NCBI GenBank assembly: GCA_021108035.1
Contig: JAIORQ010000065.1
Span: 1-64,000 of the forward strand
Length of the DNA stretch: 64,000 bases
Source of the DNA: Bacteroidales bacterium
GTDB taxonomy: Bacteria > Bacteroidota > Bacteroidia > Bacteroidales > JAADGE01
Direction of reading: 5' to 3'
Positions 8,040-60,636 of this stretch are shown piece after piece; positions within the stretch are counted from its first letter, which is position 1, and every line of letters starts with the position of its first letter. Made by a program: the position numbers and the translations under genes. The notes under the pieces were generated by a model. That model was not told the DNA's origin and did not search any database. It worked only from the letters and a program-made list of their open reading frames with translations.

Positions 8040-8340
8040 ATTACATTGGCTCTATTTAATGAAATTGTTGTTAGATAAATTTTTTATTTTTATATTTATT
8101 TTTAACAAAAACCGTTAAAACGGTTAATCTTATTCATATTGTTGTCATAACCACGACTAAAGTCGTGGGTTGTAATTTAAAATATTAACCCAAGACTTTA
8201 GTCTTGGGATAATAAAATACAGTCAATCATCCTAACGGTTTTAACCGTTTTCACACAATTAAAGCGAATGTTCTTTAAAAAGATAAACTAAAAAACAAAA
8301 TATATACAGCAACAATTTCATTAAATAGAGCCATTACATT
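8040..8340. mobile_element. MITE-like element B (285 bp) with perfect ends, 8-bp target duplication and hairpin cargo
   Basis: The element proper is 8048-8332. Its terminal inverted repeats are perfect over 23 bp (8048-8070 and 8310-8332), beginning GGCTCTATTTAATGAAATTG. The flanks are both ATTACATT (8040-8047 and 8333-8340), an 8-bp target duplication. Inside are four palindromes in mirror order: AACCGTTAAAACGGTT (8110-8125), CCACGACTAAAGTCGTGG (8151-8168), CCCAAGACTTTAGTCTTGGG (8189-8208) and AACGGTTTTAACCGTT (8234-8249). No gene is encoded. Perfect ends and duplication indicate recent insertion. Confidence 0.85.
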
Positions 8341-24808: not shown

Positions 24809-25078
24809 TTAAGGTAACCTCTATTAATTAATTTCTTTCAAGAAACAAATATAATGAATAAGATGCGAGGCACAAATTTTATGTAATAGCCGTAGCTGTT
24901 TCAAAAAATTTTAACGAAGTCAGATTGTTTATTCTATTTGTTCCCAAAGGGTTTTCAGAGTTTTCCGGATACTTCTTGAAATTTTCTTGCATTATCCCGA
25001 TAGTGCTTCATAAATTTCAATCGTCTATAAAAAACTCTGAAAATCTTGATGCAAATTAATTATTAGAGGTTACCTTAA
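24809..25078. mobile_element. MITE-like element C, copy 1 (266 bp, TA duplication)
   Basis: The element is 24811-25076, flanked by TA as expected for IS630/Tc1-type targets. The ends are inverted: AAGGTAACCTCTATTAATTA on the left and AAGGTAACCTCTAATAATTA on the right. A second copy of exactly the same length lies at 60369-60634 with high identity throughout. Inner arms around TTTTCAGAGTTT and AAACTCTGAAAATC give a large hairpin. There is no gene inside. It occupies the whole gap between ugd and the decarboxylase gene and may act as a terminator or processing site. Confidence 0.85.
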
Positions 25079-55712: not shown

Positions 55713-55786
55713 GTGGTTGTAGTTCAGTTGGTTAGAACGCCTGATTGTGGTTCAGGAGGTCGTGGGTTCAAATCCCATCATCCACC
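55713..55786 (+). tRNA. tRNA-His (anticodon GTG)
   Basis: The cloverleaf reads acceptor GTGGTTG with CATCCAC, D arm GTTC...GAAC, anticodon stem CCTGA/TCAGG around the loop TTGTGGT with anticodon GTG (55747-55749), and T arm GTGGG-TTCAAAT-CCCAT. The base before the acceptor is G and the discriminator is C, the G-1:C73 pair specific to tRNA-His. There is one T-T mismatch at pair 5-68. CCA is not fully encoded (CCAA follows). Confidence 0.93.
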
Positions 55787-56135
55787 CAAAATACTCCCGA
55801 GGGTCTTTATTAATAAGGTTTTTGGGAGTTTGCTTTAAAAAACGGCACAGCTTCAACACAGTTGCAAAGCCATTGATTACCACTTTTATAGCTTATTGCT
55901 CAAAAAAATTGATAAGAACTATAAAAGAAAAAAAATCCTACAATCTTCGTTGATTATCTTACTACGGAACTTTACAAAATAAAGATCAGTATATTTATTT
56001 ATTATGTAAAATTCCTGTTTAAGTTACTTTTATGAAAATATTACTCTGCAAACACTCATATAAAAGGACAAGTTAATAATTTGTTTATAACTTAAAAAAG
56101 TATAAATTTGTACAGATATCATAATTATTAGAGTA
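55787..56135 (+). other. Gap after tRNA-His with two stem-loops and a promoter
   Basis: No gene is seen. ACTCCC (55793-55798) and GGGAGT (55824-55829) enclose an inner TTATTAATAA arm and could end the tRNA transcript. A second, AT-rich hairpin lies at 55881-55927 (CTTTTATAG...CTATAAAAG). At 56080-56110, TTTG and TAAATTTG are 19 bases apart, a good promoter 25 bases before the first gene of the accessory cassette. The place behind a tRNA gene fits insertion of foreign DNA; no repeat of the tRNA 3' end was found downstream. Confidence 0.55.
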
Positions 56136-56810
56136 ATGAAAATAAGAAAAATTATATATGAAATAAATTTTGTTCATATTCTTAATTTTAAGGAAGAATA
56201 TCAAAAAATTGTTATGCCATATTTTGATTTCACAGATAAAGTACAATATGTAATATTAAATGAAAAAACTATCCATGAAGGAATGAGGTTAATTTTTCCT
56301 AATGAAGGATGTCAAATTGATATGACAATGAAATTCATTTCATTTACTTTTGAGGGTGATATTAGTGAGTTAAAAAAAAGTAATAAAATGAGTCAATTGT
56401 TTTTTGATATATATGAAAAAATTTCAAAATTAGAAGGTTTTCATAGAACAACTAGTCACAAATTTATTTCATATGCTGTTAATATAGATAATAATGAGAA
56501 TGATATAAAACCAGATCATTATTTTAAGATTAATCCATTTAATAATATTTTCGATTTTGCATGTATTTATAATTATAATGATGATAAATATAAATGTAAG
56601 TATACATGTGGTCCATTTGAAAAAAAGGATATTTTAAAATTTAACCTAAATCAATTTGAAACAGACAATAATAAAGATTTATTTGATAATGCTGGATTTT
56701 TACATGAAATTGTTGTAGTTGAAGATGTTTCCAACGTAAGTTTTAAGAAATTCAAAGAATTACTTAAATATAATGAAAATACTTTTAAAAAATATTCAGA
56801 AAGTAAGTAA
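56136..56810 (+). CDS. Unrecognised protein, first gene of a three-gene cassette
   Basis: The 224-residue cytosolic protein is rich in Asn, Lys, Ile, Phe and Asp. It begins KIRKIIYEINFVHILNFKEE; the middle has EGMRLIFPNEGCQIDMTMKF then ISFTFEGDISELKKSNKMSQ and LFFDIYEKISKLEGF. The pattern of a beta sheet with a repeated FE-G-D turn is loosely like the sporadically distributed TIGR04255 proteins, but I would not assign it. It has its own promoter (56080-56110) and is followed one base after its stop by the next gene. Base composition is even lower in GC than the neighbours, a sign of transfer. Confidence 0.5.
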   Translation: MKIRKIIYEINFVHILNFKEEYQKIVMPYFDFTDKVQYVILNEKTIHEGMRLIFPNEGCQIDMTMKFISFTFEGDISELKKSNKMSQLFFDIYEKISKLEGFHRTTSHKFISYAVNIDNNENDIKPDHYFKINPFNNIFDFACIYNYNDDKYKCKYTCGPFEKKDILKFNLNQFETDNNKDLFDNAGFLHEIVVVEDVSNVSFKKFKELLKYNENTFKKYSESK

Positions 56811-56811
56811 A

Positions 56812-57357
56812 ATGAAAGAAACAAATGATTATAGCAATATAGCTAACTTAATTGATGAAGGTGGGAAAAATATAATTTTAAAACCTAATTGTGCATCAAC
56901 AAGACAAAGTGATACTGAAGAAATTACATTGAAACCTGAAGATATTGAAACTTCAACAATTAATAAATCACTTAAAGATGAATTTGATTATTTAAAGAGT
57001 CAAAGTAAAAGAGAAAAAATATTTTTTGGTAATCCATCTGACCAGTTTCTACATTCATGGAATTTAGTTGCTTCAATATCTGCAAAATTATTAGAATATG
57101 ATGATGATTACGTTTTATTGGAATGTTTAATTGATAAAGATGAAAGAATATATGAAGAAAGAGAGTTTAATAGGTCTAAATTTAAACTTTTTGATTTAGA
57201 GGAAGGTAAGCTTTTTAAATTACAGTTTTTTGAAAGACCTTATGAAACAATGATGAGAATATTAGATAAACTGGGTTTAGTATCTGAAAATGACTTTCCT
57301 GATATTGATTTCGAATCAAAATTTAAAGATAGTCCAATATTTAAAAATTATACCTAA
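56812..57357 (+). CDS. Unrecognised protein, second gene of the cassette
   Basis: The 181-residue protein starts at the ATG at 56812, one base after the preceding stop; a further upstream in-frame ATG (56773) lies within the first gene. Residues 1-65 are polar and Thr/Asp/Glu-rich, probably disordered. Residues about 75-145 look like a small beta-barrel (LHSWNLVASISAKLLEYDDD, YVLLECLIDKDERIYEEREF, DLEEGKLFKLQFF). The next gene starts without any gap. Tight packing suggests that the products work together. Function unknown. Confidence 0.5.
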   Translation: MKETNDYSNIANLIDEGGKNIILKPNCASTRQSDTEEITLKPEDIETSTINKSLKDEFDYLKSQSKREKIFFGNPSDQFLHSWNLVASISAKLLEYDDDYVLLECLIDKDERIYEEREFNRSKFKLFDLEEGKLFKLQFFERPYETMMRILDKLGLVSENDFPDIDFESKFKDSPIFKNYT

Positions 57358-58609
57358 TTGATTTCCATTACTTTTAAAAATGTAGGGCAAGGTGATTCAA
57401 TTTTTCTTGAATGGAAGAATAATGATGATAATCATTTTGGCATTATAGATAGTAATAAGTATAAAGATACAAACCCTATCCTTGAGGAACTGAAAAAAAG
57501 AAAAATCACTGAGATTGATTTTATTATAATATCTCATTTACACTATGATCATTATTCCGGAATTGCAGAGATATTAGATTATTGTATTTATAATTCAATA
57601 AAAATTAATAGTTTTCTTCATACATTACAGCAAGATTATTTGTTTATTTTCAGTAAAATTCTTAAAAGTACAAAACAAAAATTTGTTTTAAATAGTTGGC
57701 TATGGTTTAGGTATTCTGTGAAATATGTATATTGTAATAATCCCGAACGGGATTTAACAATAGTAACCATAGGTGCAACCTATGGAAGGAACAGGATAGA
57801 TAAAAAGAACTCCGACAGGAGTTCAACACCTTTCGGTGTTGATGTTTTATATTCGTAGATTATCCACAGGTTATACCTGTGGTTACTATTGTTTCACTGC
57901 TTCGCAGTAATTGCAAAATCATCCAAGAATACCTAAACCATAGCCAAATAGTTTTATAGAAACGTTGGAAAAAGCTGATTCTAAAAATATTTTTGTTCAC
58001 TCTGGTTCAATTCAGTCTGGTATTACAAGAGACTTTTTATTATCAGAGGACATGAAACTTGTTTTTCATGCACCTATTGAAAAAGATTATCGTGATTTAG
58101 CTAAATTTAGGGCAAAATTCATGGAAGGATATACTGCTACATATCCTGATATTCATAGAGTATCGACTATAATTGAATTATCAAAAGAAAACAAAAGCAT
58201 TCTTCTTACATCTGATGCAAGGAAAAGAGCTTTTGTCAGACTAAGAAACAAACTTTCGAAATCTTTTGAACTTGTTCAAGTTCCTCATCATGGATCAAAT
58301 AATAATCTGGATAAAAGATTTTGGTTATCTTTGAAAAAAGATAACAAATGTCCATCAGTTTTTAGTGTAGGCTACCAGAAAAAAGATAAATTACCAAAAA
58401 TTGAAGTTGTTAATTTTTTCCATAATCAAAAATTTGACATTAAAGCTACAAATAATGTTTTTGGTATATCAGAATTTTATAATGAAGATAATCAGATATA
58501 TAAAGATCATTCAAATCTGCTTAATATTTTCTCAACAAAAAAAAATTCAACACTTAAACAAAAAAACATAATTCATTTTGGGGATCAACATTTTGAAGTT
58601 TTATTTTAA
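57358..58609 (+). pseudogene. MBL-fold metallohydrolase gene split by element E
   Basis: The gene starts with TTG at 57358, directly after the preceding TAA. The first part reads ISITFKNVGQGDSIFLEWKN and FIIISHLHYDHYSGIAEIL, the HxHxDH metal site of the beta-lactamase fold. At 57698 a 248-bp element interrupts it and shifts the frame; translation would end at 57858. After the element the original frame resumes (FIETLEKADSKNIFVHSG), with ILLTSDARK and LVQVPHHGSNNN typical of ComEC/Rec2-like C-terminal metallohydrolases. Removing the element and one 8-bp target copy gives one continuous frame of 331 residues. A TTG at 57965 could allow a fragment to be made, but it would lack the metal site. 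Confidence 0.88.
57690..57953. mobile_element. MITE-like element E (248 bp) with 8-bp target duplication and hairpin cargo
   Basis: The element proper is 57698-57945. Its terminal inverted repeats are perfect over 19 bp, beginning GGCTATGGTTTAGGTATTC. Both flanks are AAATAGTT (57690-57697 and 57946-57953). Inside are five different palindromes in series: AATCCCGAACGGGATT, CCATAGGTGCAACCTATGG, GAACTCCGACAGGAGTTC, AACACCTTTCGGTGTT and CCACAGGTTATACCTGTGG, then CACTGCTTCGCAGTAA-type arms. Like element B it starts GGCT, makes 8-bp duplications, carries hairpins and has no gene. Intact target copies and the repairable host gene mean the insertion is recent. Confidence 0.92.
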
Positions 58610-60366: not shown

Positions 60367-60636
60367 TTAAGGCAACCTCTAATAATTAATTTCTTTCAAG
60401 AAACAAATATAATGAACAAGATGCAAGGCATAATTTTTTTGGAATAGCCGTAGTTATTGCAAAAAAATTTAACGCAGTCAGATTGTTTATTATATTTGTT
60501 CCCATAGGGTTTTCAGAGTTTATCATATACTTCTTCAAATTTTCTTGCATTATCCCGATAGTGCTTCTTAAATTTTCATCGTCTATGATAAACTCTGAAA
60601 ATCTTGATGCAAATTAATTATTAGAGGTTGCCTTAA
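60367..60636. mobile_element. MITE-like element C, copy 2 (266 bp, TA duplication)
   Basis: The element is 60369-60634, the same length as the copy at 24811-25076 and highly similar from end to end. Ends are AAGGCAACCTCTAATAATTA on both sides, flanked by TA. Its right end supplies the final A of the TAA stop codon of the PorW-like gene (read on the minus strand, TA of the target plus the first element base). Thus the element defines the end of that protein. Confidence 0.87.

What the first reader, a model, noticed from the sequence alone, without database searches (positions are those of the whole stretch)
57358..58609. An MBL-fold gene broken by a 248-bp element whose removal restores the frame exactly
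The sequence shows both halves of one metallohydrolase, a perfect 19-bp terminal inverted repeat and an 8-bp direct repeat AAATAGTT. Deleting 256 bases (element plus one repeat) joins ...FVLN-S to FIETLEKADS in frame, giving 331 residues with HxHxDH and VPHHGS motifs. This fixes the element borders without any database and shows it moved recently.
Basis: seen in the sequence. Interest (0 to 1): 0.78.

Follow-up and report, generated by a model that had tools for sequence, protein, structure and literature searches.

The report
Hybrid hairpin-filled mobile element breaking a gene
A 248-base mobile DNA element, with the ends of one kind of jumping gene and a core of hairpins like those that flank a quite different kind, has recently jumped into and broken a metal-enzyme gene of an uncultured Bacteroidota bacterium; the insertion is ordinary, but the mixed make-up of the element, seen here more than once, seems not to have been described.

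Summary
Nine other full-length copies lie in the same genome (one identical, two over 99%), so the jump was recent. Its ends are of the IS1595 family: in a congener the same 24-bp end adjoins IS1595 transposase codons, and eight contig ends of this genome stop inside such an IS. It is the only one of 14 copies examined that interrupts a gene. An uninterrupted homologue exists in the same three-gene operon in another family of the order.

It is an inverted pair of composite palindromes of the kind that flanks IS200-type (Y1/HUH) transposase genes in this and sister genomes. A second MITE in the window (8048-8332) carries the palindromes of a different Y1 gene, and a sister species carries core 1 between other ends. 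So MITEs here repeatedly carry REPIN-like cores. I found no description of this in the papers I could search. What the core does (terminator, cargo, second transposition system) is untested.

The parts
56136..56810 (+). First ORF of the operon, 224 aa, uncharacterised
   Evidence: ORF; counterpart in the intact operon of G047, 30% identity
56773..57357 (+). Second ORF of the operon, 194 aa, uncharacterised
   Evidence: ORF; counterpart in G047, 36% over 73 aa
57358..57697 (+). 5' half of the MBL-fold gene (HLHYDH motif), TTG start
   Evidence: Pfam Lactamase_B 32.2 bits over cut-off 22.7; homologue in G047
57690..57697 (.). Left copy of the 8-bp target duplication AAATAGTT
57698..57945 (.). 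248-bp MITE of IS1595 type
   Evidence: TIR, TSD and copies; ends shared with IS1595 elements
57698..57717 (+). Left terminal inverted repeat, 20 bp perfect
57739..57754 (.). Hairpin A of the left palindromic unit (AATCCCGAACGGGATT)
57756..57785 (+). Conserved link AACAATAGTAACC plus hairpin B of the left unit
   Evidence: same motif beside Y1 genes; compensatory changes
57807..57824 (.). Hairpin C; terminator-like on the minus strand
57824..57841 (.). Hairpin C'; terminator-like on the plus strand
57864..57893 (-). Hairpin B' and link of the right, inverted unit
57896..57908 (.). Hairpin A' (ACTGCTTCGCAGT)
57926..57945 (-). Right terminal inverted repeat
57946..57953 (.). Right copy of the target duplication AAATAGTT
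57954..58609 (+). 3' half of the MBL-fold gene (VPHHGS motif)
8048..8332 (.). Second MITE in the window with the same plan: 8-bp TSD, core matching palindromes of another Y1 locus

Best explanation
The feature is a recently inserted MITE of the IS1595 family. An IS1595-type DDE transposase, supplied in trans by full-length copies in the same genome, acted on the 20-24-bp GG-ended TIRs and integrated the 248-bp element with an 8-bp staggered cut (AAATAGTT), splitting the MBL-fold gene, the last gene of a three-gene operon. Shown: borders, TSD, copy family, IS1595 ends, an uninterrupted homologue. Inferred: which transposase copy acted; loss of the MBL enzyme (frameshift, stop after 166 codons, metal-site halves separated). 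Between the TIRs the element does not carry a shrunken IS. It carries an inverted doublet of composite palindromes (A-B-C...C'-B'-A') of the type that flanks IS200-like Y1/HUH transposase genes in this genus, as if such a locus had lost its gene and been captured between IS1595 ends. Because hairpin pairing is kept through compensatory changes and C/C' look like back-to-back intrinsic terminators, I infer that the core persists because it makes the element cheap between genes by ending transcription both ways. That last step is inference only.
For: Ten full-length copies in the genome, six at 93-100% identity counting the window copy, with 8-bp TSDs exact or 7 of 8 in most. In congener G001 the same 24-bp end is followed by codons whose products match an IS1595 transposase: N-terminus E 3.8e-10, C-terminus E 5e-11. 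An IS at C99 with ends GGCTTTAGTTTA encodes a transposase over the NCBIfam IS1595 cut-off, 185 vs 75 bits. Eight contig ends of this genome stop 55 bp inside two homologous end types, as expected of about four collapsed IS copies. IS1595 members have 8-bp, A/T-rich duplications and related elements conserved terminal GG (PMC8101967, PMC12561309). Core: best match to Y1 loci 77.9 bits against at most 31 in 200 shuffles, while the element's ends score 27; Y1 genes sit between tail-to-tail copies of the unit at C98 and at G013 C589, and beside copies at C69 and G009 C272. Compensatory changes at 11 pairs, 28 cells, 0 of 500 shuffles as high. Terminator-like sites 4 found against 0.2 expected. Thirteen of 14 copies examined are intergenic. 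Uninterrupted MBL homologue in the same operon order, no gap at the join.
Against: No full-length IS with exactly these ends was recovered; its middle is missing from the assemblies. The nearest intact MBL homologue is only 33% identical, so there is no near-identical empty allele. Transposition, terminator activity and loss of function are not tested. The 14 aligned rows are related, so shuffle statistics overstate independence. The 151-bp MITE with the same TIRs showed no Y1-type core.
Confidence: 0.86

Rival explanations
1. Ordinary IS1595 MITE whose interior only resembles Y1-locus palindromes by convergence: both are short terminator-like hairpins of common sequence in an A/T-rich Bacteroidota genome.
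For: Hairpins with terminator-like tails are common in bacteria; identity of core to Y1 loci is only 73-85% over pieces; the 151-bp MITE with the same TIRs has unrelated palindromes.
Against: The whole order of hairpins and the unpaired link AACAATARTAACC are shared, not just stems; 77.9 bits against at most 31 in shuffles; an independent MITE matches a different Y1 locus equally well.
Confidence: 0.1
2. Two-engine element: the core is still a live substrate of the Y1/HUH transposase, so the element moves both by its IS1595 ends and by its hairpin doublet.
For: Pairing of the core conserved with compensatory changes; core 2 also occurs in 133-136-bp elements without visible TSD; several Y1 genes are intact.
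Against: Nearly all good copies of core 1 in this genome sit in MITEs or beside Y1 genes; no free core-1 doublet was found here; pairing is also explained by terminator or inverted-repeat gene conversion.
Confidence: 0.1
3. Reversible switch: precise excision between the AAATAGTT repeats, helped by the long hairpin, turns the MBL gene back on in part of the population.
For: Exact direct repeats, strong hairpin; an IS1595-family IS forms excised circles joined over its 8-bp repeats (PMC12561309).
Against: No reads to show excised molecules; the copies are scattered between genes rather than placed as switches; any TSD insertion has this geometry.
Confidence: 0.04

Closest known systems
IS1595 family insertion sequences and their MITEs (IS1016, ISPna2, ISSod11 groups; Merlin in eukaryotes)
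   Same: GG-ended 20-24-bp TIRs, 8-bp A/T-rich TSD, non-autonomous, matching elements with a zinc-ribbon DDE transposase in the genus
   Different: The interior is not an internally deleted IS but a palindromic doublet like that of another transposon class
REPINs / BIMEs of RAYT transposases (REPtrons, TIRtrons; PMC3116915, PMC2817692, PMC3733652)
   Same: Inverted doublet of palindromic units with a spacer, folding as a hairpin; the same units flank a Y1/HUH transposase gene in inverted orientation; mostly intergenic
   Different: Units are larger composites without the GTAG tag; the Y1 protein scores as IS200/IS605 and lacks the RAYT NP(L/V)(R/K)xG motif; copies spread inside IS1595 ends with TSDs
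REP sequences as targets of IS elements (PMC1525189)
   Same: Association of REP-like palindromes with DDE insertion sequences
   Different: There the IS lies in the REP; here the REP-like doublet lies inside the MITE
Other bacterial MITEs with elaborate interiors (Correia/NEMIS, RUP, ERIC; BrickBuilt with a minisatellite, PMC4596501)
   Same: Small TIR elements, mostly intergenic, some with strong hairpins or repeats inside
   Different: Other end families; to my knowledge interiors not linked to Y1 transposase loci

Membership tests
IS1595-family MITE | GG-ended terminal inverted repeats | tested here: met
   GGCTATGGTTTAGGTATTCT, 20 bp perfect
IS1595-family MITE | 8-bp target-site duplication | tested here: met
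   8 of 8 at the window copy, C76, C9, C50 and L068 of a sister genome; 7 of 8 at C24, C47, C61
IS1595-family MITE | Same TIRs on an element encoding an IS1595 transposase | tested here: met
   G001 C7/C51/C10/C42 ends beside transposase N- and C-terminal codons; family confirmed on the related C99 copy. A full-length element with identical ends was not recovered
IS1595-family MITE | No transposase gene, multiple copies | tested here: met
IS1595-family MITE | Mobilised in trans by that transposase | not testable with these tools
   needs a transposition assay
REPIN (REP doublet) | Two palindromic units in inverted orientation with a spacer, folding as a hairpin | tested here: met
REPIN (REP doublet) | Same unit flanks a Y1/HUH transposase gene in inverted orientation | tested here: met
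   clear at G000 C98 and G013 C589; copies also beside the Y1 genes at C69 and G009 C272
REPIN (REP doublet) | GTAG-type tag of classical REPs | tested here: not met
   no GTAG at the unit ends by inspection
REPIN (REP doublet) | Associated transposase is a RAYT with the NP(L/V)(R/K)xG motif near the tyrosine | tested here: not met
   148-aa protein lacks the motif by inspection and passes the IS200/IS605 NCBIfam cut-off; criterion from PMC2817692
REPIN (REP doublet) | Moves as a doublet without other transposon ends | tested here: inconclusive
   core 1 found only in MITEs, as parts beside Y1 genes, or as single units; core 2 also in four 133-136-bp elements with ends TGCATTATTCA and no clear TSD
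Known anti-phage MBL systems | MBL protein above a curated cut-off with the right partners | tested here: not met
   NCBIfam 6A-MBL 37 bits against cut-off 220 for the homologue; PADLOC LmuA, PDC-M48B and RTasMBL at superfamily level; partner ORFs without convincing hits

The most novel reading that the evidence does not exclude
A general class of two-engine mobile elements in Bacteroidota: DDE-type MITE ends around a still functional hairpin doublet of a Y1/HUH transposase, with ends and cores exchanged as modules (core 1 with two end types, core 2 with two end types), so that each engine spreads the other's substrate.
Probability: 0.12. Interest if true: 0.75.

Novelty: new variant of a known kind. 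Interest (0 to 1): 0.45.

Why it matters
MITEs are thought of as shrunken IS elements, and REP doublets as the clients of their own single-strand transposase. Here MITEs with three sets of ends carry REP-like doublets resembling two different Y1 loci, in one genus. If general, this gives REP-like palindromes a second way to spread and may explain why some MITEs have elaborate hairpin interiors, possibly because a built-in two-way terminator makes insertion between genes cheap. Both ideas can be tested directly. The interruption of the MBL gene itself is ordinary.

Tried and rejected
Self-splicing or other RNA-level removal: frame restoration is automatic for TSD insertions, and Rfam gave only sub-threshold hits that I take as chance. 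Phage or plasmid cargo: no match in the phage or plasmid collections, nor the TIR in viral contigs. Full-length IS with identical TIRs: the genome-contig scan and a transposase search in seven genomes found only ends or partial genes at contig breaks. The 151-bp MITE with the same TIRs (C14, C16, C81, C27): its palindromes did not match any Y1 locus of the genome, so the Y1-core rule is not universal. Promoter inside the element: 1 found against 2.2 expected. tRNA-His-bounded island: no direct repeat of the tRNA 3' end downstream in the window. Assembly chimera: rejected because both flanks belong to one gene and share an exact TSD. No structure prediction was run, as it would not bear on the main question.

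Full report
What is there. The element is 57698-57945 (248 bp), flanked by AAATAGTT at 57690-57697 and 57946-57953, with perfect 20-bp terminal inverted repeats GGCTATGGTTTAGGTATTCT. Deleting 256 bp gives an open frame of 331 codons. Frame restoration follows automatically from any insertion with a target duplication in an ORF, so the evidence for insertion is the TIR/TSD geometry, the other copies and the uninterrupted homologue.

The gene. The 5' half scores as Lactamase_B above the Pfam cut-off; the 3' half has VPHHGS and ComEC-like similarity. An uninterrupted 341-aa homologue (33% identity, no gap at the join) lies in a genome of the same order, in the same order of three genes; both upstream ORFs have counterparts there. 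The system is unnamed: family scans gave only superfamily-level similarity to known defence MBL proteins.

The element family. In the same genome there are ten full-length copies, one identical to the window copy, two above 99%, others down to about 77%, plus remnants. TSDs of 8 bp are exact at the window copy, C76, C9 and C50. Of 14 copies examined in three species, only the window copy interrupts a long ORF. A scan with the TIR found 38 ends, including a second, 151-bp MITE. Public records of the sister genomes that share the element are labelled Bacteroidales or (one) Chlorobiota MAGs.

The ends are IS1595. Eight contig ends in this genome stop exactly 55 bp inside an element with TIR GGCTTTAGTTTAGGTATTCTGTGA, in two reciprocal end types, as expected of about four collapsed copies of one IS. 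In congener G001 the TIR identical over 24 bp to the left end of the MITE is followed directly by codons for the N-terminus of an IS1595 transposase; other contig ends with a near-identical TIR hold the C-terminus. A related intact IS at C99 encodes a transposase above the IS1595 cut-off. GG ends and 8-bp A/T-rich duplications are traits of this family and its relatives (PMC8101967, PMC12561309).

The core is something else. Element positions 39-214 match sequences beside Y1 (PF01797) transposase genes: C98 and C69 in this genome, C589 in G013, C272 in G009. The unit is hairpin A, a link AACAATARTAACC, hairpin B, a spacer and hairpin C. Two units stand tail to tail in the element, as they do on the two sides of the Y1 gene at C98 and at G013 C589. 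The core scores 77.9 bits against these loci, 200 shuffles at most 31, and the element's own ends 27. The whole element folds far better than shuffles (z -12.4 as DNA, -13.7 as RNA). Across 14 elements 97% of paired cells hold, with changes on both sides at 11 pairs, none of 500 shuffles reaching this; the rows are related, so this is supportive rather than a formal probability. Hairpins C and C' read as terminators on opposite strands (4 terminator-like sites against 0.2 expected).

It is not a single accident. In sister species G006 a similar core (about 77% identical) lies in 266-270-bp elements with another TIR, GGGTCTATGTTGATTWAGG; the two TIRs might still be diverged relatives. In the window itself, 8048-8332 is a 285-bp MITE with ends GGCTCTATTTAATGAAATTGTTG and 8-bp TSDs at its copies, whose core matches the palindromes beside a different Y1 gene at C7 (83.3 bits against at most 31.9 in shuffles). 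That second core also sits in four 133-136-bp elements with ends TGCATTATTCA. The 151-bp MITE shows no such link, so the rule is frequent, not universal.

Mechanism. Shown: insertion borders, copy family, IS1595 ends, similarity of the core to Y1-locus palindromes. Inferred: the transposase supplied in trans from the full IS copies; loss of MBL function; capture of a Y1 locus that had lost its gene, or recombination of REP-like units between MITE ends; retention because a two-way terminator makes the element cheap between genes. That the Y1 enzyme still moves the core is open but unsupported for core 1 in this genome.

Comparison. As a transposon it is a member of the IS1595 MITEs on every feature I could test, transposition itself excepted. 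The core works like a REPIN/BIME (definition in PMC3116915), but two defining features of classical REP/RAYT systems were tested and not met: the GTAG tag and the RAYT motif (PMC2817692). It is better called REPIN-like, of the IS200-type or TIRtron kind described in PMC3733652. The literature searches available found IS elements in REPs (PMC1525189) but no MITE built around a REP-like doublet; subscription journals and ISfinder were not searchable.

Verdict. What lifts it is the modular make-up of the element and its recurrence. New variant of known kinds; interest 0.45.

Noticed in passing
window 8048-8332: 285-bp MITE, TIR GGCTCTATTTAATGAAATTGTTG, TSD ATTACATT, about five near-full copies in the genome; its core matches palindromes beside the Y1 gene at C7.
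   Followed up: yes
window 60371-60632 and 24809-25078: Third MITE family: 262 bp, TIR GGCAACCTCTAATAATTAAT, 4-bp palindromic TSD (TTAA or ATAT), some 15-20 long copies in the genome, strong double hairpin, no Y1-type core seen.
   Followed up: partly
window 55713-55787: tRNA-His just upstream of the three-gene operon; no repeat of its 3' end downstream within the window.
   Followed up: partly
window 56136-58609 and L117 1250-3500: Conserved three-gene operon with an MBL-fold enzyme and two uncharacterised proteins, patchy in the order (one clear near-full-length match among 98 relatives); possibly an undescribed defence or conflict system.
   Followed up: partly
L005 1503-1764 and L008 1501-1761 (C24 and C43 copies): In two MITE copies hairpin A is replaced by a different palindrome (TAATTGCAACAGCAATTA), as if hairpins were exchanged as modules.
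   Followed up: no
L158-L161: 133-136-bp elements with ends TGCATTATTCATGAA and core 2, without visible target duplication; candidates for doublets moved by the Y1 enzyme.
   Followed up: partly
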